A stretch of DNA of 64,000 nucleotides from Brasenia schreberi (Eukaryota; Streptophyta; Magnoliopsida; Nymphaeales; Cabombaceae): the NCBI GenBank assembly GCA_036023115.1, contig JAYKKT010000055.1, positions 9,306,001-9,370,000 of the forward strand, in the 5' to 3' direction. The notes under the pieces are model-generated. The model was not told the DNA's origin and did no database searches. It worked only from the letters and a program-made list of their open reading frames with translations. The position numbers and the translations under genes were made by a program. Positions within the stretch are counted from its first letter, which is position 1. Each line of letters starts with the position of its first letter. This document shows positions 4,851 through 63,494 of the stretch, piece after piece.

Positions 4851-4855
4851 GATGG

Positions 4856-4913
4856 CTTTAGAATTCACTTAATTACTCACATAATTATGTGAGTAGCTAA
4901 GTGAATTCTAAAG
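4856..4913. repeat. 58-bp near-perfect palindrome
   Basis: Starts CTTTAGAATTCACTTAA and ends TAGCTAAGTGAATTCTAAAG, symmetric about 4,884.5. The two 29-nt arms differ only at two positions near the ATTA/GCTA step, with no loop. It lies directly after the GLOX fragment and before a TA-rich tract. It could extrude as a cruciform or be the fused ends of a small inverted-repeat element. Confidence 0.85.
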
Positions 4914-5041
4914 GGTATATATATAAGTATGTATATGTATATATGTATGTATCTCTATATATGTATGTATACATTATCTATATATGCATATGCATATATA
5001 TATGTATGTATATGTATCTGTGTATATATACATACATATAC

Positions 5042-5046
<5 letters not shown>

Positions 5047-5107
<61 letters not shown>
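5047..5107. repeat. (TA)n microsatellite, about 30 units
   Basis: Uninterrupted TA dinucleotide run inside a wider TATG/TACA-rich zone (4,915-5,107) and near a second TATA/TACA-rich zone at 5,380-5,490. Long tyrosine/isoleucine reading frames across it are artefacts of the repeat. Confidence 0.95.
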
Positions 5108-5109
<2 letters not shown>

Positions 5110-5400
5110 ATTAATTAGGTTTATTGAGCTTTGAAACCTTAGAAACCAAACCAAAACAGTACATTGAACCATGGGTTTGCTCCAGCGATGAGCAAATCTA
5201 CTTATGTAGGGATCTCATGGGTCAGTTCATATATATATATATAAGTATTTGTATGGGTCAGATCTTTGTGAAACCACGAGGCATAAATTAAACTACTGTT
5301 TCTTATCGCACAATACAATTTTAGTTAGAAATTTTGATTGTATACAGTTGATGGATATCGAATCGTATTGCATTCAATGTATTTGTATGTATATACATAT
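5110..5400. repeat. Rearranged copy of the 13,640-13,930 repeat
   Basis: 5,110-5,150 is the inverse of about 13,630-13,680 (TTTCTAAGG.TTCAAA.CT...ATAAACCTA), while 5,262-5,390 matches 13,795-13,920 in direct orientation (GTGAAACCAC.AGGCA.AAAT and GATGGATATCGAAT). In both places a GLOX fragment lies alongside, so the two loci share a composite ancestor. Confidence 0.55.
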
Positions 5401-26022: not shown

Positions 26023-27765
26023 GTACTGCGTCTCTCCCTCCCTCCCTCCCTCTCTCTCTATCTATTTATGCGTGTGCGTGCGTGTGAGTTCACTTCTTTT
26101 CCTCGTTATCTACGGCGTTGGTGAAGAGGAGATCCCATAGTAATGACATTTCGTTAATGATATTGAATTTCATAAGATTCAAAGAGACAATACAATGTGT
26201 ATTGTTTCTACTAATAATTGTCAGAAATGTAAAAGAATAATTGTCAGAAATGTAAAAGGGAGATCTTATTGTAATATTCCAAGGTTAAGTGATCATGATC
26301 ATGGATCGTACCATTGATGTGAATCGGCCAAGCTTGATTGAGTCCAATTGGAACGGGCTGCAAAGAACCAACCATGAAAGCTATGGCATGAGCCAAGGAG
26401 GACTCACCTAGAAGAACTTTCACTAACTTCAAGTTTTAAGAAAATTGTTGAATGCATGTGAGAGGAACATTGTGGCTCACCCGGTGTCAAAGCAGTTTGA
26501 GTCCTTCAACAATAGACGATTCTAGAGGAAACTGGAGTTAATGCACTTGAGGGCCTTAATTAGAAGCACAACTGATGTAAAACTTTGCCTTTGAGTTCGT
26601 AGGACGTTTTAAGTTGTTTTGTTTGTGATTTTTAAAATAGTTTAATTAGTAGTTAATGTTGCAAGGTGACAACTATTTCCCAAAAATTCCTAGGTAGTAT
26701 TTTACAAGAGCTGGAGAAACAACCTAAAATCATAGGGAATGAAAACAATCCACCTAGTAAAATGTAGGGTATTAATGTTCTTTTTGAACTAAGCTCAGAG
26801 AGTCTGTTTTGAGCATAAATAAACAAATTATAGAATGAAAAATAAGATTGTTTTGGCTCTTGAGTTTTACTCAATCTCCCTCACTCTTATCCTGTATAGG
26901 TGGTGAGTGAACTAGGCCTTATCACCATTTTGGCGTGGCAGTTAAGGTGTATGTATGTGTTTGTGTGTGGGACTTGGTTCCACAAGCGAATGCAAGCGCA
27001 TTAATAGTTGCTCGCACATAGTTCTTCTCAATCCTCTCTAATCAACTCAACTCACATCCTCTCTAACTCGGTCTGTTTGAGAGGATGTGAACTGAGTTGA
27101 TTAGAGAGAGTTGAGAAGAACGGCGTGCGAACAACTATTAACACTCTCACATTCGCTTGTAGAAGACCTGCCATACAAAGGAATGGTGATAAGACATGGT
27201 TCACTCGCCACCTATACATGATAAGAATTAGGAAGATGGAGTAAAACTTTAAAGCCAAAATAATCTGATTTTCATTTTGGAATCTATCTATTTATGCTCA
27301 GAACATACTCTCTGAGGTGAGTACATTAACACCTTACAATTTACTAGGTAGATTATTCTCATTCCTTGTGATTCTATATTGTTTTCCAAGCTTTCCAGTT
27401 GAATGCATTAAAGGGCCTTGAGAAATACTAGGTAGGAATTATGAGAAAATAGTTGCCACCGTGCAACATCAACTACTAATTAAACTATTTCAAAAATTTT
27501 AAATAAAATAGCTTAAAACATCCTAGAAACTCTTAGGTAAAGTTTTGCATCAATTGCATTTCTAATTAAGGCCCTAAACTACATTAACTCCAGTTTCCAC
27601 TGAAATCTTCTGTTGTTGGAGGACCCAAACTACTTTGACACCAGGTGGGCCCCCATGTTCTACTCGGGATCCCACATGCATTCAACAATTTCTTTAAAAT
27701 TTGAAGTTAGTGAAAGTCTTACTAGATGAGTCCTTAGCTCATGTTATGGCTTTCATGGTTAGTTT

Positions 27766-28121
27766 TGTTGAATTCAAGCATAAAATATAGATTGAAATAG
27801 CCAAAAAAGAAGTCCATACATATTCCTTGAATCAGGGCAGCAGTCGGCTGCTCCAAAATGGCTACCGTCCTTCTATTCCATCTTGTTTTCTATTAAGCAA
27901 CCCTAATTACATATTTATACTAATCCATGTTCTAACTTAAAAGATAGAAATAACCCTACTTAAAGTACACGGTTTCTAGTGGATCCTAATGGATCTGAGC
28001 TGATCCATTAGGACCCAAACATGTAACTGACCCAAACACATAACTCGACTCACATTTAAATTACATAAGACAGTAAAACATAAAGACTGAAACATATGAA
28101 TACAAAACTTGATCTCCAACA
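27766..28121 (-). repeat. 3' LTR of copia A
   Basis: 356 bp, TGTTGA...CCAACA. On the minus strand it carries a TAGGG.T.ATTTCTATC.TTTAAGTTAGA block (27,931-27,959) and a GC-rich dyad downstream, matching the 33,031 copy. Confidence 0.95.
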
Positions 28122-28128
28122 TGCCCCC

Positions 28129-31100
28129 TCAAGTTGAGTCTTGAAGAGTTGTAATTCCTATCCTTGCAAGGATTTTCTTAAAGTCATTTACTGGTAATGC
28201 TTTAGTTAGAATATCTGTCAGCTGATCTTCTGAGCGTACATGAACAAGGTTAAATATGCATTGAGAAACTTTCTCCCTGATAAAGTGGCTGTCAATTTCT
28301 ATGTGTTTAGTCCTCTAATGAAATACTCGATTCGAAGCTATTTGGAGAGTTGCTTTACTATCTGTAAAGAAGTTAATCAGCATTTTGTCTTTGAGACCAA
28401 TCTCCTCTAGAAGTGATATAATCCATAGACCTTCACACATTCCTAAGGCAATTGTCCGGTACTCTGCTTCAGCACTCGATATGGCTACCACAGATTGCTT
28501 TTTACTATTCCAAGAGACTATATTGCCACCTAAGCATACCATATAACTAGAGGTAGATTTCCTATCAGTTTTAGAACTTGCCCAATCAGCATCAAAATAG
28601 ATTTCTAAATTCATCGATGAGTGTGGAGCATATAGTAATCCATGGGTAATAGATGACTTTAAATATCTGATTATATGAAATACTGTGCTCATGTGATATC
28701 TGAACGGATAATGCATCCACCTACTGACATATCCCACTGCAAAGCTGATATCAAGTCGAGTTATAGTTATATATATCAATTTTCCTACCAGCCTCTGGTA
28801 CTTGCCAATGTCTTCATAAGGTCCTGTTGACTGACTATCTTCTTCTCTTGGAGTATCCATAGGAGTAGAACATATTCTACACTCCTCCATTTTGATTTTC
28901 TTTAGTAAGTTAAGGATGTATTTTCTTTGGCTTAGAAATAAACAATTATTTTTATGTATTACTTCAATTCCCAAGAAATAGTGTAATCTGCCCACATCTT
29001 CAATTCCCAAGAAATAGTGTAATCTGCCCACATCTTTTAAGTCAAATAAAGTTTTTAAATTTTTCTTTAGTTCAACTATGCCCTCTGCATCATTACCAGT
29101 GATAATAATATCATCCACGTAAACTAGAAGTATGATAACTTTCTGGCCATGCTTGATAAAAAGTGTATTATCACTGATACATTTAGTGAAACCCAGTTTC
29201 ATAATATCATCACTAAATTTTTCAAATCATGCTCATGGAGATTGTTTCAAGTCATAAATTGATTTCCTCAATTTACATACTTTATTCTGCGTTTGTTTCT
29301 GAAGGTAACCTGGAGGTATATCCATATAAATATCTTCCATGAGATCTCCCTGAAGAAATACATTTTTTACATCTAACTGCCATAACTCCCATCCTTTATT
29401 AACTGCTACACTCAGAATTATTTGAATTGTATTCATCTTTGCAACTGGGGCAAATGTTTCAGTGTAATTAATGCCATATGACTGACTGTAACCTTTAGCC
29501 ACTAATCTGGCTTTGTACTTTGTATCTTTCAATATTGCCATATGCTTTATACTTTACAGAAAACACCCATTTGCACCCAACTATCTTCCTTCCTGATGGT
29601 AAGTTCACTAGTTCCCAAGTTTTATTTCTGACTAGTGCATCAATTTCTTCTTCCATTGCTTTCTTCCATTCTGGCTTTTGTTCTGCTTCTTCAAATATTC
29701 TTGGAATAAGAATTGAATCAGTATTCATCACAAATACCTGATATTCTTAAGGGTAATTAGAATATGACACAAATTTCTGCAAAGAGTATTTTGCTACCTC
29801 TCTTTTCCCTTTTCTGACAGCAATAGGGAGATCAATATCTGAAGCGTTAGAAGTAACTTGAGTTGGCAAGGAATCTGAACCTGAACTAACATCCTGACCT
29901 GGTAAAAACACCTTTCTGTCACCTCTTGAATACACTTGCCAGTCTTTATTTTGAGTAAGTAGTATCTCTTCATCTTCCTTCTCATGTTGTGCCTGATTTT
30001 CAATCGGAGGAATATGTATCACATGTGGACCAACAATTTTAGGTGGAAAATCTTCTTAGATATTATAAAATGGTATATCTTCATGAAATGTAACATCCAG
30101 AGTAACATATAGTTTTCTGCTAATAGGATCATAACACTTATATCCTTTCTGAGTAGAAGAATACCCCACAAATATGCATTTGATAGATCTTGCATCTAAT
30201 TTATCCTTTATACCATGATACAGATGAATAAAACAAGTACATCAAAAAACTCTGGGAAGTAAGTGAAATTGCTTCTGATGAGGACATAGTAAGTGGAAGG
30301 GAGTATTACCATTTAGGACTCTGCTCGGCATGCAGTTTATGAGATACACTTCTGTCAATACTGCGTCACCCCAATAGTATTTGGGAGCATTACTCCCAAT
30401 CAGTAAGGTTTTGGCTACCTCAAAAATATGTCTGTTCTTTCTTTTAGACACACCATTTTATTGGGGAGAATAAGCACATGAAGTCGGATGTAGCATTCTA
30501 TTTTCTACAAAGAATGAGTGAAGATATTGGGATATGAACTCTCCGCCATTATCACTGCGAAGAACCTTGATAGTGCCCTGAAATTGAGTACGTACACATT
30601 TACAGTAGATGGGGAGAATATTCCTTACTTCATCTATAGTTTTCATAAGATATATCATTATAAACCTGGTGCAATCATCTATAAAAGTTATAAAGTATTT
30701 AAAGCCATGCAAAGAAGTAGTAGCACAAGGACCCCAAACATCAAAATGCATAATTTCAAAAGGAATAGATGATTTTTATTCACTCAAAGGAAATGAAATA
30801 CGATGATGTTTTGCCTTCTGGCAAGTTTCACAGTTCAAATTCAAATTATTACATAAACTGAATTCAGGAAGTAGAATCCCAATCTTAGATAAATGTAAGT
30901 GTCCCAATCTTTGATGCCAATGAGGTATATCTTTTTGTTTTTTCTGTAATACTGGTAGACTACATCGTTGCTTTATTATTATCTTCACAGAAATAGAGGC
31001 CTCTTCTCATATTACCTTGACCATAGATCTTCTCCGTCCTCAGTTCCTGAAATGCACATCCAGTAGAATAAAAAATTATACGACATTTCAGATCCCGAGT

Positions 31101-32411
31101 TAAAGAAAATACTGATAATAAATTAACTGAGAGACTTGGCACATGTAAAACATTTTTTAGTACACCAAAAGAAGTAGTAATGTTCCCTTTTCCTACTATA
31201 GAAGTATGAGATCCATCTGCCAATCGGATGTTAACAGGTTCTTGAGTTTGCTCATAACTATCAAACCATTCATTTCCACTGACCATATGATCGGTTGCTC
31301 CTGAATCAATAACCCATATCTGTGAGTTAGAAGTGTTTAGATTACCCTTAGCTAAGAATGAGAAGGGGTACGCCATGGTTGCTTGAGCTTCATTATTAGA
31401 GGAAGTGGATGGAGCATGTGAATCAACCAACCGAGCCTTCAGTAATTCAATCTCCTTCTTCATGTCTGCTAGTGAACTGCCATTGTTTTCAATATCTTGT
31501 TTGTCCTTCTGAACACTGGTCAAATAAGCACTATTAGGTCTATTCTCGAATTGAGTAGGTCTTCCAATTAATTCCCAAAATGTTTCTTTTGTATGTCGTG
31601 TTTTTCCATAGTGAGAACAGGTTAATTTTGATTTCTCATCAGAATGAGGTGTGAATCTGCCTCTACCACGACCATAACCTCCTCTATCACGAGAAAATAA
31701 AGAATTTTGTGTATTTCTCCCCACGAATGCAGTAGTCTCTGTATTAGTTTTTGCTTCCTTCTCTAAGTGTTTCCTGTCTTCCTCTCGAAGTAAAAGTGAA
31801 TATATTGTGCTTAGAGAGGGTAGTTCTTCTCTGCTCAGAATGTTATTTTTCACTGCCTCATAATGTGAAGAAATTCTCCATAACAGATTGAATACTTTTT
31901 GTTCTTCAAATTCTTCATTTCTCTCTTGTGTGCAATTTTGACATTTTATCTTAGAGTACTGTAATTCTTCTCAGAGGCCTCAGAGTTCTGCATAATATTC
32001 ATTAACTGATCTGTTTCCTTGTCTGCATCGTCTAATTTTCTCAATAATATCATATTTCTTGGCTATGTTTTTTCTCTGAGCATACGCATCATGGACTGCC
32101 AACCAAATGTCTTTAGCTGAGTCTAGGAACATAAAAGTGCTGGGGATTGATGGAGACATTAACTGAAGGAACCAGGCACTGACTAGTGCATTTTCCCTAC
32201 GCCATCTTGAGTATAAAGGATCATTTATTGGAGGTTGAATTACCTCACCAGTTAGATAATCCCAGCGCCCCCTTGCCATTACTGCTAGTTCTATCGATCG
32301 AGCCCACTGAAGAAAATTCTTTCCATCCAGTTTTAAATTGGTTATTTGAAAACCTTCACTCTTATCTGTCGAACAGTTTTCATTTGTATCACCCATCTTT
32401 ATACTCTCCAT
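28129..32411 (-). pseudogene. Copia A gag-pol polyprotein, broken
   Basis: Minus-strand order: gag from the ATG at 32,411 (LDGKNFLQWARSIELAV, then IWLAVHDAYAQRKNIAKKYD); a zinc knuckle near 31,620-31,580 with two cysteines changed (CSHYGKTRHTKETF); protease WVIDSGATDHMVS near 31,315; pre-integrase HQRLGHLHLS and CETCQKAKHHR; integrase core with DVWGP and SDNGGEF (30,751-30,458), then a nonsense codon at YSPQ*NG and K in place of the catalytic E in the following GVSKRKNR; reverse transcriptase [14 protein letters not shown] to YVDD near 29,120; RNase H ending HIEIDSHFIREK; stop at 28,129. Several frameshifts and a 36-bp internal duplication add to the damage, so it cannot make a working polyprotein. 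Confidence 0.9.
28963..29034 (-). repeat. 36-bp exact tandem duplication in copia A RT
   Basis: Two adjacent 36-bp copies (28,963-28,998 and 28,999-29,034) encode DVGRLHYFLGIE twice in frame. This segment follows the YVDD catalytic loop, so the duplication would insert 12 residues into the reverse transcriptase palm/thumb region. Confidence 0.95.
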
Positions 32412-33030
32412 TAATAGCTGAAGATAGGTTGTCTGTAAGTAGTCACCCTTTGACTAAATCACACCTCAAAATCTGAATGTTGGTGCGTGTAATCAGCCTT
32501 AATTAGAGTTGAATAATATAGACTGAATAATGTATACTTTCCTTTCTTCAAATCACGGCACAATCTATGTTTGCCGAATTCACTTAGGGAGAAACTCACC
32601 AAATCATGATCTTCGCTAATGACTGACCTCTGCAATCAGTTCACAAAGAAACATATAAAGCTTTCTCACGTTTTGACAATATGGCTGAAATTAGGGTTAT
32701 GTCTGAGAAACATTAAACAACTTTGACTCTGTGAAATCTGAGAACGATTAAATGATTCTTGAATCTCACAACTTAATCAACTATGAAAGGCGATAAAAAA
32801 ATTCCTGTAACCACAATACTCAATCTAATCAAGAGACTTCATTAATGCCTTTCTTGTTGTGCACGTATTCAATAATAACTTCCCTTCTTTATTATTGAAT
32901 CTGCTGTCATTTCAGACTTGAAATAATGCACCAAATGGTAAAGTATACTCACAGTTTCTGGTTAAAACTTCGTAATCAGCCTGATTGTAATCCACGAGGG
33001 TCTAAACTCCGAGTTTAGGCTCTGATACCA

Positions 33031-33385
33031 TGTTGAATTCAAGCATAAAATATAGATTGAAATAGCTAAAAAAGAAGTCCATACATATTCCTTGAATCAG
33101 GGCAGCAGTCGGCTGCTCCAAAATGGCTGCCGTCCTTTTATTCCATCGTTTTCTATTAAGCAACCATAATTACAGATTTATACTAATCCATGTTCTAACT
33201 TAAAAGATAGAAATAACCCTACTTAAAAGTACACGGTTTCTAGTGGATCCTAATGGATCTGACCTTATCCATTAAGACCCAAACATGTAACTGACCCAAA
33301 CACATAACTCGACTCACATTTAAATTACGTAAGACAGTAAAACATAAAGACTGAAACATATGAATACGAAACTTGATCTCCAACA
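33031..33385 (-). repeat. 5' LTR of copia A
   Basis: 355 bp, TGTTGA...CCAACA, directly preceded on the plus strand by GGCTCTGATACCA, the complement of the primer-binding site. It would drive the element's transcript towards lower coordinates, opposite to the host gene. Confidence 0.95.
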
Positions 33386-39484: not shown

Positions 39485-39803
39485 TGTTAGTGTAGTATTT
39501 TAATGTTAGTAAGTGTGTAGTATTAGTGTTAGAAGTTAGTGTCTTATTGGGTCAGTCAGGAGTTTACTGGGTCTTGTAATTCGGACTGATCCATTAGGAC
39601 CTTGAGTTAATTAAGAACTAATTAGGGGTATAGTGGTCATTTAAGTTAGATCAGACTTTTATATAATCTCTGTTGTAATTAAGGTTAACGTGTAACTGAA
39701 TAGAGAATAGAGGTGGCGGCAGGAAGAATGAGCCGACCAACCCATTCCATCTTTCTTTCAATGTCTGATTTATTTTGTTGAGTGATTCTTCATCAAAACG
39801 ACA
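39485..39803 (+). repeat. 5' LTR of copia Y
   Basis: 319 bp, TGTTAG...ACGACA. It carries ATTAGGGGTATAGTGGTCAT then AAGTTAGATC (39,621-39,652), a TTATATAA box (39,659-39,666) and GGTGGCGGCAGG downstream. It lacks 19 bp present in the 3' LTR (a GATCCATTAGG-type inverted segment). Confidence 0.95.
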
Positions 39804-40612
39804 TGATATCAGAGCCTTCTACGAAGATTTAGCAATCCGCTGAAGTCGTCTATCCCTGAAAAACACAAAAGTAAGTAAACTTGTGAGTTTTTAAACGATT
39901 GGTACAGAAAAATTGCAGTATTTCATTATCTGTATAAGAAGATGTGCACGTTTGGAACAAGTTGTCTGTGCATCTCTTGAATCAGCCTTGGTACATGCTA
40001 AGTTGTGAATCGAATCACAAATCAGATCACGTTATTGAAAGGATTGTGGTGTATCATCAATCGGATTGTGATATTTCAAAGAAATCTCATTGAATCAGCC
40101 TTGGTATAGGTCAACTAATTTCTATCGTGTGCAAGACAGTTGATTGAATCTCCATTGTATCTCAAAGGCATCTCGTGGATATTTGCTTGAACCAGTTCAT
40201 TGAGTCTGGCAGTGGAGAAATAAATCTTAAGGAAGTGCATCGACACACCTTGGAGCAGCATAACTCGCAGAATTTTTTTGTGCATAGTGTCATCTTACAA
40301 ATCGTTGCTTCAATTCCCTAAATTTCTGTGTGATCAAGTCAGCAACAAAGGAATCTCGTTTGCTGGTAATCACTTTGTCTTGAATTTTTCCTGACAGCCG
40401 TGGTGGATTGAAATCAAATGAGTCATTGATAATCTTGATTCTTGCATTACATAATCAAGGAAGCATTATAGATTGAGTTAGCATATACAGAAATATTTGT
40501 AATAAAGTGCATATGCAAATAAACTGATTTAATACCACAAAGACTTTGTACCACAATTATCATCAATCTATTTGAAGGAAGGAATCTTAGTTTCAAACAG
40601 GTGTGAATCAAC

Positions 40613-43600
40613 ATGGAAGTCATATTGAAAGAAGAATCACTATCATCTACGTATGGAAATGATCAAAAGCTGGAACCATTCCAAATGTTCGGCTAGATGA
40701 AAGAAATTACAGAGAATAGGCTAGGTCTATTGAACTTGTGTTACGATCCAGAGGAAAGGCATCTATTATTAGACAGAGTCCACCTCCTCTAGAAGGAAGC
40801 AGTGCAGATTATGAAAGATGGTCCAAAGATGATGCTCTTGTAAGCTCATGGCTAATTCAATCCATGAATCCTTCCATCAGTAAGACTTTATGTATATGGA
40901 ATCAACAGCTGAAATTTGGTCTGCAGTGGAAGAAACTTACTCCAGACAAAGAAATATAGCAAAAGAATATGAGATTGTTGAAAGAATAAGAAAATGCCGC
41001 CAAGGGACCAGATCAGTCAGTGAATACTATAGAGAATTACGAGAACTCTGGAATGAACAAAGACATTGTGGAAAATAAGTGCAGCCACTATGTAAAGGAG
41101 AGAACAACTGAAGGAGAAATTCAAAAAGTGTTTGATTTACTTTGGGGAATTTCATCAGAATACGAATCAATCAAGTTAAATATTCTAAGCAAGAAAGAAC
41201 TTCCATCTTTTGAAACTGAATATTCATCCCTACTAAGGGAAGAAGATCGGAAGAATTTAGAGAAAGGTGAACATATACAAGCTGAGAAATCCACATTTAT
41301 TGGTAGAGGAAAGAGCAGTTACCAGAGAGGAAGAGACTCATTTAGAGGTAGAGGAAGAAGAAGGAATCAGAATTATGATGATAAGAGCAAACTAAAGTAC
41401 ACACATTGTGGGAAAAAAAGATACACACGGGAATATTATTGAGAAATTATTGAGAAACCTCCAGAATATAAAGATTATGGCAGAAAACCACATAATACAA
41501 AGATTATGGCAGTCATGTGGCAACTATATCTGAGAAGAAAGGAGAAATGAATCCTATAGATGAAATGAAAGAATTGAAGAAACAGATTGCAGAAATTGAA
41601 ACACGTCTACGGGATCAACCTTCAACCTCCTCATCAAAGACAGAATTAAGTCCTCCTACTTCTTCCAGTATTAGCGGTAACTACTCTCTTAAAGATTCTA
41701 TAGTTTTTTCTAATTGGATAATAGATTCAAGAGCTATCGATCATATGGTAGGAAACAAGTCTAATATGATGCGATATGAAGTGACTTCAACTCCTCAGTA
41801 TATAAAAGTAGCAAATGGTTCTTTGATTCCGATGGAAGGAAAGGGAACAATTCAGAGAGATAATCTCAGGCTTAACTCAGTGATATATATTCCAAAATTT
41901 CCAGTAAATCTACTTTCAGTTAGTTTATTGGTTAGATATGAATTGTACAGTTACTTTTTCTCCATATGGCTGTGTTTTTCAGGATTTGAAGACAGGAAGA
42001 ATCTTTGGACGTGGTGAACTACGCAATGGATTATATATGTTACCTTGAGATCAAATTTTAAGGCAGAAAAGAGCATTGGCAGCTAGTACTACTGAAGAAT
42101 AAATAAAAATTTGGCATAGTAGATTAGGATATTTGTCTGTTTCAAAATTAAGAGAGTTTGTTCCTTTTTCAATTCCTAGTGATATGGTCATTCAATGTGA
42201 TGTATGCCAAAAAGCAAAACATCATAGAGCTATTTTTCCTACTAGTGAATCAAGATCAGTTGTTCCTTTTGAGTTGATATATTCTGATGTTTGGGGACCA
42301 TGTGTGATACCTTCTATTGGAAATTTTAAGTACTTTGTTACTTTTATTGATGATTTTTTCAGACTTACCTTTGTTTATCTAATGAAGTGAAAGTCAGAAA
42401 TCTCTTCGAATTTTCCTCTAGTTCATAATCTTATCAAGACTCAGTTTGGTTATACTGATCAGATAATGATGGAGAATATTGTAATACTCAGTTGGAATCA
42501 TTTTCTCAATCTCACAGCATCATACATCAGACATCTTGTGTTTATACACCACAACAGAATGGAGTAGCAGAACGAAAGAATCTACATATCTTGGAGATCG
42601 CTAGAACTTTACTTATTGAACACAATGTTCTAAAATATTTCTAGCCAGAAGCAATTCTTATAGCAGTATATATCATAAATAGAATTCCGATTGTGACTCT
42701 TGCAGGAAAGTCTCCTTTCAAGGTGATTAAATCTAGAGATAATTCATTCCATCTCATTCCCAGAATATTTGGATGTACTTGTTATGTGCACGTTCATCAA
42801 CAATTCAGAGATAAGCTTGATCCAAGGGCAATAAAATATATTTTCATTGGATATTCTTGTGAAAAGAAAGGATACATTTGTTATGATCCTAACTCTCATA
42901 GAAGATATATTTCTATGGATGTAACCTTCTTTGAGACTACTCCATACTACAAAAAGTCGAATAAGGTATCTGATTCTATCTTTGAAGAAACAATTGTTCT
43001 ACCATGAATCACTGTAAGTGAAGAATCAGAGGAAGAAAATGCTCTTTGAGAAAAGGGAAAAGATCTTGTGCCAAATATCCTATATCCCGATTTGTGTCTA
43101 CTAAAAACCTTTCTATGCAAAGACGAGCTTTATTTCGAGCTATTGATTCTATCAAATCCCTACATCGCACAAGAAGCCTTAAAGGATGAGAAGCGGGTTC
43201 GAGCCATGAATGAAGAAATGGGTGCTTTGGAAAAGAAACGAGACTTGGGAGATTGTAGAGGCGAGAAGGGACAAGAAGGCGATGGGTTGTAGGTGGATAT
43301 ACACGATTAAATATCGATCCCGATGGTACCTTGGACCGGTATAAAGCGAGAGTTGGTTGCAAAGGTATACACCCAAACCTATGGGATCGATTATGAGGAG
43401 ACATTTGCTCCAAGTGGCAAAAATGAATACGGTGAGAATCATCCTCTCCTTGGCGTAAGCACTTTGGTTGGGAGATGCATCAATTCGATGTTAAAAATGC
43501 TTTCCTACATGGAAGTTTGGAGGAGGAAGTATACATGGAGATTCCACCTGGATATGGTGCCATTAATGGTGGGAATAAGGTTTGCGAGACTAAAAAAGGC

Positions 43601-44753
43601 ATTGTATGGCCTCGAAGCAGTCTCCCCGTGCTTGGTTTGGAAGGTTCACTCGGCTATGGTATCCTTGGGTACAAACAAAGTCAAGGTGACCATACTCTCT
43701 TTATAAAACATTCTCGGGATAGCAAACTTACACTTGCTTTTGGTATATGTAGATGATATGATTATTGGCATGCAATGATGAGCTTGAAAAAAAGACTCTA
43801 AGGGAGAGGTGACTACTCGATTTGAGATGAAAGATCTCTCGGGAAGCTAAAATACTTCCTTGGGATTGAGGTTGCCTATTCTAAGCGTAAGGCATCTTTA
43901 TTTCTCGGAGGAAATATATCCTTGATCTCCTCGAGAGAGCTTGGTAAGTTGGGTGTAAGATCTACTCGAGTGCCCGTAGAGCAAAATCATGGATTGGGAG
44001 TGATGTGGAGAGCCCAAAGGTGGAGAAGGCACTGATACCAAAGACTTGTGGGAAAACTCATCTATTTATCCCACACCGTGGCCAGATATAGCTTATGTAT
44101 GCAGCTAGTGGTTAGTCGGCTCAAGTAAGCTGATCCAAGAGAAAGGCACTACAGGCTTGATGAAAATAGAATTATTCAAGGTACTCTGAAGGCCTGCTCG
44201 GGGGGAAGAGGATCTGTATTCAAAAAGGAAGGAAATTTATTCATGGAAGTATATGCGAGTGCCGTACTATGCGGGGTAATAATTGTTGATAGGAGGGAGA
44301 TCCACCACAGGATATTGCATGTTCTTGGGTGGAAATGCTGGGTGACTTGGCAAGGAGTAAAAAGCAAAATGTGGTTGCAAGATCAGAGTGCAAGTTGAGC
44401 TTGGTAGAGGTATGGCGTCGAGGGATTTGTGAGTTGTTATGGATGAAAGATTTATTCTCGATGACCTCAAAATAAAATATGAAGCTCCTATGAGATTGTG
44501 CTACTGTGATAATAAGTTCGGCCGTCAAAGCATTGCACACAACTTGGGCTCAAAGCATGCATCGGACAAAGCAGCATAGAGGTAGATCGACATTTCATTA
44601 AGAGAGAAATTGGACGGTGGTCTTATAGCCATCAGTGCGACGCCACTTCAAGGTCAGCGATTGGCAGATATGTTCACTAAGGCAATTACTAGAGATCTAC
44701 TTCAGAGATTGTGCAGCAAGTTGGGTGTAACATCCATCTTTCACCCAACTTGA
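40613..44753 (+). pseudogene. Copia Y gag-pol polyprotein, broken
   Basis: Start ATG at 40,613. Gag pieces: YERWSKDDALVSSWLIQSMN, EIWSAVEETYSRQRNIAKEY. The zinc knuckle CTHCGKKRYTREYY (near 41,404) has lost H and C; the protease site is DSRAIDHMV (41,728; G to R in the DSG triad); pre-integrase CDVCQKAKHHR; integrase DVWGPCV, TFIDDFFR; capsid-like tail RDKLDPRAIKYIFIGYS. Reverse transcriptase pieces: GIDYEETFAP, HQFDVKNAFLHGSLEEEVYM, IPPGYG. RNase H ends in ...FHPT with a stop at 44,751-44,753. From about 43,000 onwards small insertions and deletions are very frequent, while motif order is kept. Confidence 0.88.
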
Positions 44754-44760
44754 GGGGAAG

Positions 44761-45098
44761 TGTTAGTGTAGTATTTTAATGTTAGTAAGTGTGTAGTATT
44801 AGTGTTAGAAGTCAGTGTCTTATTGGGTAAGTCAGGAGTCTACTGGGTCTTATAATTCAGACCTAATGGATCAGTTGTTTCTGATCCATTAGGACCTTGA
44901 GTTAATTAAGAACTAATTAGGGGTATAGTGGTCATTTAAGTTAGATCAGACTTTTATATAATCTCTATTGTAATTAGGGTTAACGTGTAACTGAATAGAG
45001 AATAGAGGTGGCGGCAGGAAGAATGAGCCGACCAGCCCATTCCATCTTTCTTTCAATGTCTGATTTATTTTGTTGAGTGATTCTTCATCAAAACGACA
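44761..45098 (+). repeat. 3' LTR of copia Y
   Basis: 338 bp, same termini. It retains CCTAATGGATCAGTTGTTTC before GATCCATTAGG, a short hairpin that was collapsed by deletion between its arms in the 5' LTR. Confidence 0.95.
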
Positions 45099-45601
45099 TA
45101 TTCTAGTTTGAGAAGAGAAGACACCTTAATATCCTCGTGGCTACTTCAGTCTATGATTCCTTCTATTGTAAAAACTTTTATGTTTTTTGAATCAACCCAT
45201 GAAATCTGGTGTGCAGCCTCAGAAGCTTATTCTAGAAAGAAGAATGTAGCTAAGGAATACGAAATATTAGAAAGAATCAAGAAGTGCAAACAAGAAAATC
45301 GTTCTATTAGTGTTTATGCGGATCTTCGTGGATTATGGGATGAACTTCTTTTCTACACAAATATCAAGTGTTCATTGTGTTACACTGAAAGGAACATTGA
45401 AATTGAAAAGAAAAAAGTCTTTAACTTGCTTTGGGGAGTAAATCTGAAATTTGAGTCTATCAAGATTAATATTTTAGGCCGTGAAGAACTTCTTTACTTG
45501 ACACAGTATATTCCTTATTGATTCGAGAAGATCGCATAAATCTTGAGAAGGACAACTCTACTCCTATAGAAGAACATGTTATGAATAAATCTAATATTCA
45601 T

Positions 45602-56410: not shown

Positions 56411-56750
56411 TAGATTAGGGATTAGTATAACTACTGGTTGTAATTAGGTTAGAATATATAATAAACAAGAGAGGTAGACGACGGCCAATGCTGGGATCCG
56501 ATTCTGTACTTTTTCAGGGATGATGTGTCTGCCTGTGTTTCTTCATATTAGTTGTTGATTGATGGAAATTATCAGCACCATCAGATGTGTGCTAGTGGAG
56601 GAGATCCTCTTTCTCGAGGCTTTTCTGGTCATCAGAAGGCAGGGGAGCAAAGTCGGTTTCATACGCCATGTTTTTGTTGCCATTTGTTCTTTATGTTTTA
56701 GTGGAGTTTCTTCTTTGCATGTCAGAGACACTTATATGCAACCTAATCTC
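56411..56750 (+). other. LTR-like scrap plus unrecognised sequence
   Basis: 56,411-56,515 reads like an LTR U3/R piece (GTAATTAGGTTAGAATATAT, then GAGAGGTAGACGACGGCC), possibly the deleted end of V or another element. 56,520-56,750 continues on the far side of W (from 61,618) once W is removed. I see no gene. Confidence 0.4.
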
Positions 56751-57088
56751 TGTTGAATATATGAGTTTAGAGTCAGTTTTAGTACATATAATGTCTTAGG
56801 ACAGTAAAATTGATGTTTAGAGTATTATTGTAATTGTCCGAAGTCGTAAGGGCATTTTGGTAATTTTCTGTACTAGGGGTATTTTGGTTATTTTACGTTT
56901 TACAGCTCCTTATATAAGGGCTGATAGGCTCTATTAGGGTTTAAGAGTCCGAGATTAAGAGTGAGAGAGAGAGGGGGCGGCCTCCATTGGAGGGCCTGCC
57001 CCCTCCTTCAAATTTCCATTATTACTCTTCATGTTTATGAATATTTTCTATTATTTATTATCCATTGCGTTTCTCGGTAATTACAATA
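56751..57088 (+). repeat. 5' LTR of element W
   Basis: 338 bp, TGTTGAATAT...TTACAATA. The last two bases are TA instead of the canonical CA found in the 3' LTR. It contains AGGGGTATTTTGGTTATTTT and TTATATAAGG (56,932-56,941) upstream of a GA-rich tract and a GGGGGCGGCC...GGCCTGCCCC dyad (56,973-57,003). Confidence 0.93.
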
Positions 57089-57284
57089 TGGTATCAGAGC
57101 CTTGGCGATCAATGGAGCACCAAGCAATCGCTGTAAACGTGTGATTGAGATTCAGCCATACGGATGGGAAGAAAGAAGAAAATGAAACAAGACTGTATTT
57201 TGGAACCTAGAATTGTCCAGGGAAGATCTGGATCGATTAGATTATGTTGGAATAAAGGCCAACGTAGAATAACTTGCATGCAAG

Positions 57285-57452
57285 ACACTGAAGGTTGTTT
57301 ATGCGGATGCTGACTCTCTCGATTTTGTCATGGAGTCCTGCCCAGGTGGTCGCTAACTTGACTGTATGGAGAAAGAAGGTAGCTTTCCTGAGAGACAAGC
57401 TGTTATTCTGCTTAAGGATCTCATCTTGGTTATCAAGTACTGCGACAAGATT
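57285..57452 (+). pseudogene. Captured kinase-like fragment in W
   Basis: One frame reads VYADADSLDFVMESCPGG, a stop, LDCMEKEGSFPERQAVILLK and IKYCDKIGEKR. The pattern (hydrophobic)VME.C.GG.L.D....G.F.E..A..(L/I)L......YCH..G matches subdomains V-VIa of CDPK-type serine/threonine kinases. The ATP lysine, HRD loop and DFG are outside the fragment. It is short and partly degenerate, so the family call is moderate. Confidence 0.45.
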
Positions 57453-57464
57453 GGAGAGAAAAGA

Positions 57465-57995
57465 TGCAGGAAATATGTTATGAAGTCAGTGTGCATTTAT
57501 TTACTACAATGATCAGAGTGTTTGCAAGGAAAGGCCGACTTGATGCAACTCTCTCTATATTGGACGAAATGAAGACCAACAGTTTCAATGCAGACATTGT
57601 TCAGTATAATATTTACATAGATTGCTTTGATAAGGATGGAACAGTCCATATGGCATGGAAGTTTTTCCATGAAATGAAGGTTCAAGATATCATGCCCGAC
57701 AATGTGACCTATTCGAGCATGATTGGTATCCTCTACAAGACGATTAGAGGAAGTTGTTGAAATCTTTTGAATAAATGAAAAATAACAGTAATGTACTTTG
57801 TACATATACATATTCGACCATGATTATGGGCTATGATTCTGCAGGCAAAATTGATGAGGCTTGTAGACTTTTAAGGAGATAAAGAAGGATGCCAAACCTA
57901 ATCTTTCAACTTATAATATTCTTATTGAGATGTTGTACAGGACAGGGGCCATGGAGATTGTACATAAATTCAGGGATGCAATGGAAGCTGCAGCG
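57465..57995 (+). pseudogene. Captured pentatricopeptide-repeat fragment in W
   Basis: Reads FTTMIRVFARKGRLDATLSI, LDEMKTNSFNADIVQYN, IYIDCFDKDGTVHMAWKFF, HEMKVQDIMPDNVTYSSMIG. These are three successive 35-residue P-type PPR units with the usual (V)TY(N/S).(L/M)I and A..LF.EM positions. After a frameshift near 57,755 further PPR-like phrases occur (YSTMIMGY-like, NLSTYNILIEMLYRTG and RDAMEAA in shifted frames) to about 57,995. PPR proteins bind organellar RNA. With no start codon context or targeting peptide this is a gene fragment. Confidence 0.85.
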
Positions 57996-58661
57996 AGGAA
58001 GACGATCAATATATTATTTTTAAAGTGTTTCATGCAGCAGATCCTGACTTCGCTCTGTGGATTCATAGAGAATGTTTTTGAGCACAAGGTCCTTAGAGAA
58101 ATATTTGACACTTATATTCTGCTGTGCATGTTCCTATGATTTACGTGAACTTCTCAAGAAAGAAGAAGAAGATAGAAAAAGAAAGTTGCTGGGTGCAAAA
58201 TAAAAAAGGTAACAATGGTGGCTGAACCATTCTTGGAGAAAATTAGTTATGGAAGATAACTATATTTCTTTTTTGAATTTCAAATGCTAGAAATGGAAGT
58301 TACAGATTATTTTTCCAGATTTTGTGGAAAGTAAACCAGAAAGGTAGATATGGAAAGTACTTTTTCTGATTTTGTGGGAAAGCTAACAAGAATTAGTTAT
58401 GAAAAGTAATTTCCTGATTTGGTGGAAATGATAAGGAAAAGAAATCATAAGGATGATTCTAAACATAAGGATGAGTACCACATTTTTTTAGGAAAGAAAA
58501 AGGTAACTTCTACCCATCATCTGCATAAAGAAAGTAAATACAGGAAAAGGAATGTGGTTGATTATAGCAGGTGAATGATCACACGTATGGAAGTGGAGCA
58601 GCAATCCAAATATAATTTATAATTTATGAATGCTCGATGAACTTGCGTAAGAGTTGCTGCT

Positions 58662-58915
58662 TTGATTGTCTTACTTAAAGGCAATGAATCTAAGGAATTC
58701 AGAAAGTCATCAAAGCTGTTGAAGAATTTTTTGTCAACTGAAATGCGTGAACATTATGAGATCTGCAGCAGTATATCCAAAGCAAGGAGTGAAGGCCGAC
58801 TCTTTTCTGAGTTGAAATGGCCTAAACCAAAGACGTTGAGTTGTGGCAGACTATACAAATCAAGAGGTTGTATTCTCTCTTGAATATCAAAGATTCAACT
58901 GCAAATGTTCCATTG
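58662..58915 (+). pseudogene. Captured callose synthase (GSL) fragment in W
   Basis: Reads LSTEMREHYEICSSISKARS, EGRLFSELKWPK (to 58,826), then in a shifted frame IQIKRLYSLLNIKDSTANVP (58,853-58,912). In plant callose synthases the same phrases occur in the same order ahead of the glucan-synthase domain: ...MRE..E....L..AR.EGRLF..L.WP, then QVKRLH.LLT.KDSA.N(I/V)PKN. The catalytic part is absent. Recognised from memory of the family; a protein search would settle it. Confidence 0.7.
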
Positions 58916-59321
58916 CAGAATAGTGAAAACCTTTAAAAACATGATGGCTACAGTTGAAGAAGTTTCACAGATCAGCCCAAGAAAATTTGCAACAGATTTT
59001 TCCAGTAAAGCACAAACCAAATTCAAACTTATTCATGATGAAGTAGTTACTGAGAAGGTTAGGGAAGATAAAGCCTTTGTCAGCTCATAAGGAAAGGTAT
59101 ATGGTGAGCTCTGTTTGCTATGCTGATGAGATTCGTCATGTGCTACAAAGAAGAATCGTAGAGAATAACAGAGAATAATTGGAGATTTGCAGCCATTAAA
59201 GCTGCTGAAGTCCACAGTCATGTAGGCTGAGTGAACGACACAAAGCTTCTGTGTTATCTTTGACTAAACCAGATCAACCGTATAATCTGGAAGAAAGCAA
59301 ATAATGATGGACGTTTTTGCA

Positions 59322-59547
59322 GATAGTTTACACCCCTAAGGTTAGTGAAGCATGCCAGAAATATGGAACCATTTTCAGACGTCCATAGGGTCTCTACATA
59401 AGCTTGAAAGAAAAGGAAACATTCTTGAGGTGCTAAGGAACTGACCAGAGAAAAACATTCAGGTCATTGTTGTCACTGACGGTGAGCGCATTCTGAGGCT
59501 TGGTGATCTTGGTTGTCACGGAATAAGAATCTCTGTTGGGAAACTGG

Positions 59548-59619
<72 letters not shown>

Positions 59620-59850
59620 TACTTGGAGGAATTTGTCCATCTGTTTGCTTGCCCATTACAATTGATGTGGGAACTAACAATGAGAAGTTGCTCAATGATG
59701 AATTCTACATCTGTCTAAGACAGAAGAGGACAACTAGACAGGAATACTCGGATCTGTTGAATGAGTTCATGTCTACTGTTAAGTAGATTTACGGAGTGAA
59801 GGTTCTCATACAGTTTGCAAAGTATGGGACAACACATCTTGTCTTCAATG
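59322..59850 (+). pseudogene. Captured NADP-malic enzyme fragment in W
   Basis: Reads IVYTPKVSEACQKYGTIFRR, GLYISLKEKGN-like, [26 protein letters not shown], then a TA-repeat, T(V/A)LGG, and [11 protein letters not shown] in one frame or [17 protein letters not shown] in the next, [38 protein letters not shown]. Plant NADP-dependent malic enzyme has [33 protein letters not shown] and VLIQFEDFANHNAFDLLAKY. Here 13 residues (EDF to LLA) are deleted exactly in frame. The stretch covers several exons in known genes but has no intron-like interruption besides the TA run, which points to capture from spliced mRNA. Stops (for example TVK*) make it dead. Confidence 0.9.
59549..59616. repeat. (TA)34 microsatellite inside the malic-enzyme fragment
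   Basis: The run sits between ...GGGAAACTGGC and CAGTACTTGGAGG, exactly where the enzyme's LALYTALGG is encoded. The natural CTATATACAG-type codons contain a short TATATA that probably seeded the expansion. Confidence 0.95.
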
Positions 59851-59935
59851 ATGAAGTTCACTAAGGCTGAGAGTAATATGAATGATCTGGTGTCTGAGTA
59901 TCAACAATATCAGGACGCTACAGCTGATAAGGAGA
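59851..59935 (+). pseudogene. Captured beta-tubulin C-terminal fragment in W
   Basis: Open frame [18 protein letters not shown] then [10 protein letters not shown]. Beta-tubulins end ...[25 protein letters not shown] followed by an acidic tail, so only two E to K changes are seen before the fragment leaves the family at ADKE. It is fused directly to the malic-enzyme fragment at a shared ATGATGAAGTT. The GTP-binding body of tubulin is absent. Confidence 0.92.
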
Positions 59936-59974
59936 AGATGCACTGCAGACCAACTGTTTGATGAAACGTTTAAG

Positions 59975-60060
59975 AAGAAGTGATGATTAACTTGCGCGAC
60001 AAGTGTTTGATGAAATGCCTAAAAGAGATGTTTTTACCTGCACATTAAGTGTTCGCTAAA
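59975..60060 (+). pseudogene. PPR-like fragment, second piece in W
   Basis: Reads ARQVFDEMPKRDVFTCT, a phrase typical of PLS-type PPR proteins (A..VFDEMP.RDV..W). The phrase GTGTTTGATGAAATGCC is partly repeated downstream (60,045-60,115, KCLRKC-like). Only one repeat is recognisable, so this could be chance repetition of the short motif. Confidence 0.5.
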
Positions 60061-60789
60061 ATGTTCAAGAAGGGATTATTAAACATGCCCATTAAGTGTT
60101 TGAGAAAATGTTTAAGAGGGTTGCAGATTCAGAAAAAGATTGCAAAAGATTTAAAGTAGTACGTGATGATTGCCTTCATTGAAAAAGCAATTGAATGCAA
60201 ATAGAAGGAAAGATAGAATGCAAGAAAATCAATCTTTTTCACTACATATGCATGACAAATCAAATCATTGAAGAGGCCAGAAAAATTTGTTGATATAGAA
60301 TGTGGCAGTATCACCAAGAATCATGAAAGTTAAGACCTTGGGTTGCTGAAGTAAACAGCCAGGAGAGCTGGAAAAGCGGCTACAGTCACCATGTGAAGGG
60401 GCGCAGACTGACTAGTATAAGCAGATGTCTTTATTCTGCTATTTGAGTGGTAGAGAGAGGGCATCCAACCAACACACCGGCTGCAGCAACCATGTGAAGG
60501 GGCATAGGAAAAGCCATGTGAAGTGTGTATAGTGGAGTAGTACCTCCTATCACAAAAGATAAGCTTTCTAAAGAGTAGAAGAAACATGACTTTTAAATGT
60601 AGCTGCCGAATCACTTTATGGAGAAGAAGAAATAGAGAGGGAGCAACCGACACCCATAGAAGGGTCGGGTGTTACCCATGTGTTCTTAATTGTTTAAGTT
60701 GTTTTACAGAAGCCTCGAAGAAATTACTAGTGCACGTGTGATGAAGAAAGTCATGATGATGATAAGCCAGAAAGGAAGAGGTAATGATG

Positions 60790-61175
60790 CAGTCAGAGAT
60801 GCTGCTTGAGATGATCAGCCAGGAAGACTGAGTTGATATTGCAGTCATAGATACTGCTTAAGATGATCAGCTAGGAAGGCTGAGTTGATGTTGCAGCCAG
60901 AGATGCTGCTTGAGATGATCAGCCAAGAAGGTTGAGTTGATGTTGCAGCCAGAGATGCTGCTTGAGATGATTAGCCAGGAGGGCTAAGTTTATATTACAG
61001 CCAGAGATGCTGCTTGAGATGATCAACCAGGATGGCTGAGTTGATGTTGCAACCAGAGATGCTGCTTGAGATGATTAGCCAGGAAGGCTAAGTTTATATT
61101 ACAGTAAGAGATGTTGCTTGATATGATCAGCCACGAAGGCTGAATTGAAGATATTACAGCCAAAGAAGCTGTTGA
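60790..61175 (+). repeat. 52-bp minisatellite, about seven units, in W
   Basis: ATGATCAGCCAGGAAGGCTG recurs at 60,811, 60,863, 60,915, 60,967, 61,019, 61,071 and 61,123: exactly 52 bp each time, with scattered substitutions and no length change. The rest of the unit is AGTTGATGTTGCAGCCAGAG and ATGCTGCTTGAG. As 52 is not a multiple of three it is not a coding repeat. It lies 100 bp before the polypurine tract. Confidence 0.95.
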
Positions 61176-61277
61176 AGATTAAACCAGTGATGAAGACAGA
61201 TGAAGAATGTTGCAGACTGATGAAGATTTTTGGCAAGTTTGGAGTTCGAACTATCTCACTCCCAACTTGAGGGGGGG

Positions 61278-61617
61278 TGTTGAAGATATGAGTTTAGAGT
61301 CAGTTTTAGTACATATAATGTCTTAGGACAGTAAAATTGATGTTTAGAGTATTACTGTAATTGTCCAAAGTCGTAAGGGTATTTTGGTAATTTTCTGTAC
61401 TAGGGGTATTTTGGTTATTTTACATTTTACAGCTCCTTATATAAGGGATGATAGGCTGTATTAGGGTTTAAGAGTCTAAGATTAAGAGTGAGAGAGAGAG
61501 AGGGGGCGGCCTCCATTGGAAGGCCTGCCCCCTCCTTCAAATTTCCATTGTTACTCTTCATGTTTATGAATATTTTCTATTATTTATTATCCACTCCATT
61601 TCTCGGTAATTACAACA
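61278..61617 (+). repeat. 3' LTR of element W
   Basis: 340 bp, TGTTGAAGAT...TTACAACA, with two extra bases in the GA tract relative to the 5' LTR. Followed at once by the ATCTC target duplication. Confidence 0.93.
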
Positions 61618-63494
61618 ATCTCATCTTAGCAAATATTCTGAGAATGGCTCTGACAATCTCTGTTATGAGCTTATCTTACCATGTAAACATAGAATGTAAA
61701 TAATTTCTAGCTGGATAGGGAAGGATCCCCAACTCTTTTTATTATAACCCAGAGTGACTGCCCACTGGAGGTGTATGTTTCAATGCACCTGGTAAAACAA
61801 CTCAGATGCCAAGTAAGACCTTAATCTTGAGGGCAGATACTATGTTTTGGCTTCTGCAAGATGAACAATGCTACTGGAAATTAAACCTCTGACTGCCCAT
61901 ATGACAGCTGAGGCTCGAATAAGGGCCTTTATTTGTTCACTATCAATCTTCAAGCTCCTTGTCTCATTCCCTTCCATTGGAGCTAGATATTGCTTCCTTG
62001 GGGAAGTAATTCCATAAATCTATCCCATTATTCCCATAATGTTTGGATTGTTGATTCATATGAGAAAGGATAAAATGATCCATTTATCATTGTTAAAAGA
62101 CTTGTGGCTCCTCAAAGCTTAATGCATGTATATTGAATATTCTTGGCAAGTGACAATCTTGGCAAGAATGATATTTTTTATACGCGTGTATTGGATATTC
62201 TTGGCAAGCCTCTAAATTCACTAAATAATAGATCATTATATTCTACAAGTTACAATCATGAAAGCTTGTGTTAGAATATTTTGTCATTCTGTATTGCAAG
62301 ATTCTCAATGATTTAATAGCTGGATCATTTTACTCACGGTACTTGAAAAGTGTTTGAGCTGGAGATGAATCAGTTAAGAAGATGGATTTCTTTACTGTGG
62401 CAATGAAAATACAGAAGGAAGCCTTCTGCTGAAAAAGTGGATTACGCTTTCTTTAAACCTAATTTCTTGCGTGAAATGAAGCCCACCTTTTCAATAAATG
62501 GACTCGTGCATTTTTATGCCTTGTATCATGCAGTGGAGATGTTCTGTCTTTGTTGTGTTTGTTGGTTACTCGGGAAGCACTTTGATCACAGCTGTTAACG
62601 TAATAAACAATTATTAATTTAAACTGCTCTGGCTGATATCTGAGCACAGCATCCAAGCGTCAATCATGTGCTTCTTATGCATGTCATGAGACGTGGTATT
62701 TCTCTGGCTCTGTTACTATCAGATTTGTAGAGAATTTCAATCTAAAGCCAAAAGCTGTCAGAATCACCATTTGTACAATGGCTTGAATTATTGTATCAAT
62801 TCAGAATGGAACCATACGAGATCTTAGAAGATGATACTTCAAGCAGTAGACGTAATTTGCCTCTACATTTTTGCAAGGGTGAAAGAGGACATAAGAAGCT
62901 TCTTTTGAATGGAAAGAATAAGGAAAACTTTTATAAAACTGGAAAAATAAAACAAATAATTTTAAGAATAAATAAACTTCCAACAGAAATAGGAACCCCA
63001 AAATGATTGCACCAGAGTTAACTAAGCTGCAGTGGTTATTAAAACAGTCAAGCTGTGCTTGACTGTTTAATTTCATTGTGTATCAATTGATTCATAAAGC
63101 GGTTAAGTAGGCTCCAGCAGGAACTTGATCATCTATTGGATAGACATTGACTGCTCTGAGGTTGGTCTAACAAATATTTACAACATAAATAAATTTTCAA
63201 CAGAGAAGAGCAACAGTCCAAAACGGTTGCACCAGAATTACCGAAATGTTCATATTCAATTTGAGCTGTAGTTAATTATTGTTTAGTTCCACTGTGTGCC
63301 GATTGATTTACAAAGTAGTCAATTAGGCTCCACCAGCAATTGGTACTTACTGAATTTGATCATCTGTAGGATCGAGATTTGGCTGTTCTGTAGAGGCCCA
63401 TGTCGGGCCTCTGGAAATGGCTGTCTTTCTAATGCATGTCCAATATACAGAGGTCCATCACGTTATGTGTTTGAGTTCTGTTACTGATGTGCAG
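61618..63494 (+). other. Intron tail, no recognisable gene
   Basis: Sequence between W and exon 2. It resumes the copy of ATCTC and flank interrupted by W. No gene is recognised. The last 500 bp hold an imperfect tandem duplication (listed separately) and then the acceptor. Confidence 0.5.
62955..63395 (+). repeat. Imperfect tandem duplication, unit about 210 bp
   Basis: The segment from AATAAACTTCCAACAGA (62,970) to about 63,165 is repeated from AATAAATTTTCAACAGA (63,188) to about 63,395. Anchors: GCACCAGA(G)TTA, GATTGATT.A.AAAG, AGGCTCCA(G/C)CAG, TTGATCATCT.T.GGAT. It ends about 100 bp before the splice acceptor. Confidence 0.65.

What the first reader, a model, noticed from the sequence alone, without database searches (positions are those of the whole stretch)
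56751..61617. Element W: an LTR retrotransposon with no gag/pol carrying pieces of at least five host genes
Seen: paired LTRs, PBS, PPT and perfect ATCTC target duplication enclose 4.2 kb in which I find kinase-like, PPR, callose synthase, NADP-malic enzyme, beta-tubulin and second PPR-like fragments, all on the element's own strand, in series and with abrupt junctions. Known: plant LTR elements such as maize Bs1 have captured one to three gene pieces. Inference: W is an unusually heavy multi-gene capture, probably built by repeated template switching onto spliced mRNAs during reverse transcription. It would belong to a family worth naming.
Basis: partly seen in the sequence, partly recalled or inferred. 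Interest (0 to 1): 0.92.

Follow-up and report, generated by a model that had tools for sequence, protein, structure and literature searches.

The report
Gene-collecting plant retrotransposon family
This mobile element belongs to a plant family whose members keep the same ends and core but carry different collections of host gene pieces copied from RNA, in one branch apparently from a circular RNA.

Summary
W (56751-61617) is an LTR element with PBS, PPT, ATCTC target duplication and no gag/pol found. It carries sense-strand pieces of a kinase, a PPR gene, callose synthase, NADP-malic enzyme and beta-tubulin; the second PPR-like piece is weak. The malic enzyme gene was found: W matches six of its exons and lacks all five introns between them, so that piece came from spliced RNA.

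The interpretation changes. W is not a lone heavy capture. It is one of at least two copies (sister L009, TSD ATAAT) in a family with a constant backbone (LTR, PBS, block A, block B, 52-bp array, PPT) around two hypervariable regions. Of 15 other members scanned, 14 carry host domains at Pfam cut-off and 7 carry two or more different host genes. Six of six members checked on the antisense strand gave nothing. Modules recur across lineages, so W was assembled stepwise.

In one branch (L010 and relatives) the insert is a complete 586-nt circle of four spliced PARP exons, opened inside exon 2 and joined from exon 4 back to exon 1 exactly at the splice sites: the signature of a captured circular RNA. 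W's own pieces show no such permutation; other candidates remain untested.

The parts
56746..56750 (+). 5' target-site duplication ATCTC
56751..57087 (+). 5' LTR; 40 genomic matches scored out of 4044 first-look candidates
57089..57101 (+). primer binding site TGGTATCAGAGCC; several lineages differ directly after it
57150..57454 (+). V1 module: protein-kinase piece; 90-94% to C64:5502862-5503245, 88% to C63:5079041-5079408; about 80 nt of coding sequence missing between GACACTGA repeats
57462..57980 (+). V1 module: PPR piece, like the C68 PPR locus (L037); an internal stretch is missing, the same one as in L036
58023..58234 (+). V1 3' part, old module found at many places at about 76-97%
58263..58550 (+). 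backbone block A with imperfect internal repeats
58641..58935 (+). V2 module: callose synthase piece, also in L029, L031, L032, L033
58936..59177 (+). V2 module of unknown origin linked to the callose piece; the joint stretch 58717-59177 is matched in eleven places of the L029 type at 91-97% (one of them from 58802 only)
59322..59854 (+). V2 module: NADP-malic enzyme, six exons of C66:5116190-5117303 without the five introns; has a TA expansion at 59549-59616 and a 34-nt loss near 59816
59850..59945 (+). V2 module: beta-tubulin C-terminal piece; joined to malic enzyme at the 5-nt word GATGA
59946..60116 (+). weak PPR-like repeats
60194..60705 (+). backbone block B, about 81-92% in the other members
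60706..61200 (+). 52-bp tandem array, part of the backbone
61269..61277 (+). polypurine tract GAGGGGGGG
61278..61617 (+). 3' LTR
61618..61622 (+). 3' target-site duplication ATCTC

Best explanation
W is a non-autonomous LTR retrotransposon of a cargo-carrying family. Shown: a constant backbone (LTR, PBS, block A, block B, 52-bp array, PPT) flanks two variable regions that hold different host gene pieces in different lineages; detected pieces are sense-strand; in the two cases where a gene with introns was found they are spliced; W's whole set exists in two copies with different 5-bp TSDs; modules are shared between lineages. Inferred: the RNA is packaged by an unidentified helper's particles together with host RNAs and sister-element RNAs; during minus-strand synthesis the reverse transcriptase leaves the element template at short homologies, copies a stretch of host RNA and returns, so cargo accumulates by repeated excursions and is reshuffled by copy-choice between co-packaged elements. 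In the PARP branch the excursion went once round a circular RNA and came back to the same 10-nt word.
For: Backbone and variable regions: (18 interiors compared; three of the 20 fetched regions, L017, L022 and L028, were left out). Different host families in other members: 14 of 15 scanned have at least one family at its Pfam cut-off, 7 of 15 have two or more different host genes at cut-off (L012, L016, L018, L023, L024, L026, L027; L024 and L026 are close sisters). Sense only: 0 families in 18 antisense frames from six members including W. Splicing: malic enzyme, 5 of 5 introns absent, ten of ten borders GT or AG; PARP, 3 of 3 internal introns absent. Unit mobility: W and L009 share V1, A, V2 and B (K 0.032 over 3508 columns) with TSDs ATCTC and ATAAT; of ten elements examined six show a matching TSD (also L010 TGGCA, L011 GAGAT, L013 ATCTT, L024 GGTTA). 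Recombination: L012 and L024 share 882 bp of V2 at 93% but block A at only 76%. Microhomology GATGA at malic/tubulin. Excursion: in L029 about 940 bp of other sequence sits between W positions 58715 and 58717. Circle: the permuted PARP exon circle is identical to the insert in 574 of 594 aligned columns with 3 gap columns, against 324 alignable columns in linear order; the back-splice word is exact in L010, L014, L054, L055, L056.
Against: No autonomous partner was seen. Introns could be tested for only two captured genes. L029 gave no Pfam family in 3 sense frames. Three examined elements (L012, L015, L027) show no matching TSD at the ends I set and L019's far end was out of view. Some of the 15 scanned members were only partly in view (no LTR pair seen for L016, L038, L026). 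The malic piece also matches an intronless copy at C89 (L030, 88-93%), which could have been an intermediate, though most C66 exons match better. The C68 PPR locus changes frame (10-nt gap against W), so it may be a paralogue of the true donor. W itself shows no circular permutation. The PARP circle is one capture seen in several copies, not several events.
Confidence: 0.85

Rival explanations
1. Gene pieces were inserted one by one as DNA (processed pseudogenes or DNA transposons) into a resident element.
For: An intronless malic enzyme copy exists at C89 beside another LTR element.
Against: No TSD or poly(A) seen by eye at the one insertion that could be compared with an uninterrupted relative (L029 versus W); all domain hits are sense in the six members tested on both strands; the same anatomy recurs across lineages.
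Confidence: 0.06
2. W is a unique heavy capture built in one or a few reverse-transcription rounds.
For: Among scored matches only W and L009 hold the complete V1 and V2 (40 of 1157 and 40 of 65 candidates scored); malic enzyme was in no other W-type element (23 of 23 candidates scored).
Against: Callose, PPR, tubulin and the 58.06-58.26 kb modules are in other lineages.
Confidence: 0.08
3. The PARP permutation came from a linear RNA: a trans-spliced or exon-duplicated transcript, or two jumps that happened to fall on splice sites.
For: Not excluded by sequence alone; no RNA data are available here.
Against: Both PARP loci have one copy each of the exon 1 and exon 4 test words in the 3.0 and 2.9 kb read; the insert starts and ends at the same 10 nt and covers each exon once; the reversed junction is exact at both splice sites.
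Confidence: 0.15
4. The interior comes from a Helitron or Pack-MULE that captured genes and was later bounded by LTRs.
For: Those transposons are known gene collectors (PMC13317346, section 4 read).
Against: Introns absent at malic enzyme and PARP; cargo lies between PBS and PPT in elements with different 5-bp TSDs.
Confidence: 0.02

Closest known systems
Bs1 of maize (PMC13317346, section 4 read; original papers not read)
   Same: LTR element with transduced segments of three host genes.
   Different: Three genes; here about five in W, and other lineages with different sets on one backbone.
GmaRetroS15 and other gene-bearing TRIMs (PMC4717578, passages read)
   Same: LTR pair, 5-bp TSD, exon pieces without introns; GmaRetroS15 holds pieces of three genes.
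   Different: Those TRIMs are 1172-1449 bp; this family is several kb with two cargo regions and conserved blocks A and B.
Maize LTR elements with gene fragments (PMC2774510, passages read)
   Same: 425 intact elements with gene fragments.
   Different: That survey reports that, under its conditions, no single element had fragments of more than one standard nuclear gene.
circRNA-derived retrocopies in mouse (mentioned in PMC5408686, passages read; original not read)
   Same: Retrocopies of circular RNA with LTR sequences in the flanks.
   Different: Here the circle lies inside a mobile plant LTR element and was multiplied with it.

Membership tests
LTR retrotransposon (non-autonomous) | paired LTRs, PBS after 5' LTR, PPT before 3' LTR, short TSD | tested here: met
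LTR retrotransposon (non-autonomous) | no gag/pol inside | tested here: met
   no gag or pol family in the Pfam scans of W (the sense strand was scanned in pieces, not in three frames end to end); the window's copia ORFs find nothing in W at E 1e-5
Copia superfamily | pol gene order with integrase before reverse transcriptase (recalled) | not testable with these tools
   no pol seen in the family; the PBS type is compatible by recall only
TRIM | very short element | tested here: not met
   4867 bp; gene-bearing TRIMs in PMC4717578 are 1172-1449 bp
LARD | large element with long LTRs and conserved non-coding interior (definition recalled) | tested here: not met
   LTRs about 340 bp; interior mostly variable
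Retrocopy of a circular RNA | exons spliced, order circularly permuted, reversed junction at splice sites | tested here: met
   PARP branch only; W's malic enzyme piece is in linear order
Retrocopy of a circular RNA | the circular RNA exists in the host | not testable with these tools
   no RNA data

The most novel reading that the evidence does not exclude
The family is a general trap for host RNAs including back-spliced circles: short homologies let its reverse transcriptase make a full lap of a circRNA and return to the point it left, so the element stays intact and gains a unit-length circle. Permuted domain orders in L024 and its sister L026 (ABC1 120-237 then 52 onward) and in L027 (HSP70 294-392, with a weak 178-214 before it, then 2-30) would be further circles. 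The elements would then be a genomic record of past plant circRNAs.
Probability: 0.4. Interest if true: 0.9.

Novelty: new variant of a known kind. Interest (0 to 1): 0.8.

Why it matters
In the passages I read, multi-gene capture by plant LTR elements is a few cases of up to three genes. A family with fixed signals and exchangeable cargo shows which parts the element needs, offers many capture events with the parent genes in the same genome, and so makes the mechanism of capture directly testable by junction statistics. The listings showed no plant retrotransposon with a captured circular RNA.

Tried and rejected
Tried without result: PDB search with short kinase and callose pieces (0 hits). 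Autonomous partner: tblastn of ORFs from the window's copia-like elements against the loci (64 matches) hit only L009, L013, L015, L018, L019, L025 and L030; in the first six the matches lie outside the W-type element that I delimited, L030 is no W-type element, and W has none. L025's LTR at 4813-5151 is not followed by a PBS; L016 (second LTR) and L022 look like solo LTRs. An early idea that the kinase gap at C64 was an intron was rejected: it is coding sequence between direct repeats. An earlier count said 11 of 12 backbone loci share the junction word; recounted it is 9 of 12 with TGAAGATGC, and those 12 were picked from the matches that stop there. Notebook entry 1 left the first LTR base open; one search places it at 56751. 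I first took L030 for the malic donor; it is an intronless copy. Notebook entry 4 calls the C68 PPR locus an intact ORF; it changes frame once. Reverse-complementary matches between the introns flanking the PARP circle were only 8-9 nt, E 2 or more: no support for intron pairing. Circle tests for ABC1 and HSP70, and donor searches for the L029 insert and the L012 tRNA-synthetase module, were asked for but did not complete. Not scanned by Pfam: L011, L013, L014, L017, L022, L025, L028, L032, L033, L036, L039, L042-L058, and L009. The names TIR1/AFB (L038), histidyl-tRNA synthetase (L032) and the callose subclass were read from translations by recall, not from a call.
Full report
OBSERVATION. 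W has 337 and 340 bp LTRs (15 differences in 337 columns, K 0.046), PBS TGGTATCAGAGCC, PPT GAGGGGGGG and TSD ATCTC. Inside are, in order: kinase, PPR, an old family module, block A, callose synthase, a piece of unknown origin, malic enzyme, beta-tubulin, weak PPR-like repeats, block B, a 52-bp array. Callose synthase rests on E 3.1e-4 to 8.6e-4 to four Populus proteins and on better-kept copies of the same module in L031-L033 (read by eye). The kinase and second PPR pieces are below Pfam cut-offs; the kinase is backed by DNA matches.

SPLICED ORIGIN. The malic enzyme gene is C66:5116190-5117303. W covers six exons at 88-98% identity per block and lacks the five introns; the ten intron borders are GT or AG. 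W also has a 68-bp TA run (16 bp in L009, none at that point in the gene) and a 34-nt loss. The malic piece meets tubulin at GATGA, present both in the malic gene and in the tubulin-bearing relative L058.

FAMILY. The own genome (1.055 Gb, 92 contigs; species not given) has 40 scored LTR matches out of 4044 first-look candidates, so 40 is a lower bound. I fetched 20 regions from the top of that list. Comparing 18 interiors, W included, depth is high at block A and from block B to PPT and low elsewhere; L017, L022 and L028 were left out for lack of backbone, and L014, L016, L021, L023, L025 and L026 are truncated, nested or bounded by hand. Several lineages diverge directly after the PBS. Among scored matches only L009 shares both variable regions with W.

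CARGO OF OTHER MEMBERS. Pfam, sense strand, three frames, E up to 0.05: L012 PPR, class I tRNA synthetase, anticodon domain; L018 syntaxin-6/10/61 and DUF4704; L019 PPR plus a sub-threshold anticodon domain in a stretch 89% identical in DNA to L012's; L010 PARP regulatory and WGR; L015 BAH; L020 PP2C; L023 EMP70 and kinase; L024 and L026 ABC1 kinase and tRNA synthetase; L027 cobW, HSP70, ZFYVE26-like TPR; L031 HSP70; L021 CwfJ; L038 PPR; L016 AMG1 and PPR; L029 none. So 14 of 15 have one or more at cut-off and 7 of 15 have two or more different host genes at cut-off. L016, L026 and L038 were not seen with both LTRs. Sub-threshold names such as Sol_i_2, Toxin_YhaV and Tad4 are taken as chance. 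Antisense: 0 families in 18 frames from W, L012, L018, L023, L024, L027.

STEPWISE ASSEMBLY. The C68 locus (L037) is a PPR gene: 18 listed plant relatives at 30-70% identity, the top one 61%, one named At3g06920-like; it changes frame once, so it may be a paralogue of the donor. W and L036 share the same internal PPR loss, while L038 has a longer PPR piece upstream, so W's kinase appears to have replaced the 5' part of an older cargo. W's 58057-58260 is 97% to L039, and 58717-59177 is matched at 91-97% in eleven places of the L029 type. L012 and L024 share 882 bp of V2 at 93% with block A at 76%. These mosaics indicate recombination between members.

THE PARP CIRCLE. L010:2454-3048 matches PARP genes at C43 and C88 in the order exon 2 (second part), 3, 4, 1, 2 (first part). 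All borders are GT-AG; the exon 4 donor is joined to the exon 1 acceptor. The four exons make a 586-nt circle; opened at GATGAAGATG in exon 2 with a 10-nt overlap it aligns to the 595-nt insert with 574 identities in 594 columns and 3 gap columns, while linear order aligns only 324 columns. The back-splice word is exact in L010, L014, L054, L055 and L056; L013 holds a part and L011 only the 3' part. At the 5' junction the backbone of other members reads TGAAGATGC in 9 of 12 loci read, the same word as PARP exon 2: a plausible switch point. This is one capture multiplied by transposition. L024, L026 and L027 also show permuted domain order, untested.

AGE. LTR K is 0.046-0.088 in the nine measured pairs other than W (L019 on 217 columns only); absolute dates are not given because the species is unknown.

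LITERATURE. Review PMC13317346 (section 4 read) gives Bs1 with three genes; PMC4717578 (passages) GmaRetroS15 with three; PMC2774510 (passages) none with more than one gene among 425 under its conditions; PMC3726574 (four passages) mentioned no multi-gene element; PMC7264820 (passages) says transduced genes are usually sense; PMC5408686 (passages) describes template switching at microsimilarities and circRNA retrocopies in mouse. The listings, each only the top of its hits where there were more (for instance 15 of 11,320), showed by title and abstract start no plant retrotransposon with a captured circular RNA and no family of this design; most subscription papers are not in that library.

VERDICT. 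Observation confirmed; interpretation moved from a single odd element to a cargo-exchanging family, with one convincing circular-RNA capture in a sister branch.

Noticed in passing
L010:2454-3048 (C38:4560253-4560847): Insert equals a full lap of a four-exon PARP circle with an exact back-splice junction; several genomic copies.
   Followed up: yes
L024, L026 and L027 interiors: ABC1 kinase and HSP70 domains appear in permuted order, possible further circular-RNA captures.
   Followed up: partly
L029 (C38:6519000-6525500): Multi-copy branch in which about 940 bp of other sequence splits the callose piece without a visible target duplication.
   Followed up: partly
L030 (C89:22431500-22437000): Intronless malic enzyme copy ending abruptly near another LTR element's PPT-like sequence.
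   Followed up: partly
window 27766-33385 and 39485-45099: Two further LTR elements with degraded copia-like gag/pol ORFs, read by eye (LTRs 96% and 92% alike).
   Followed up: no
window 26366-27764: A 1.4-kb stretch is an imperfect inverted copy of itself (73% identity).
   Followed up: no
window 59549-59616: 68-bp TA run inside the malic enzyme piece, 16 bp in L009 and none at that point in the gene.
   Followed up: partly
L009:5472-6100: W's sister copy sits directly next to copia pol sequence, so it probably inserted into another retrotransposon.
   Followed up: no
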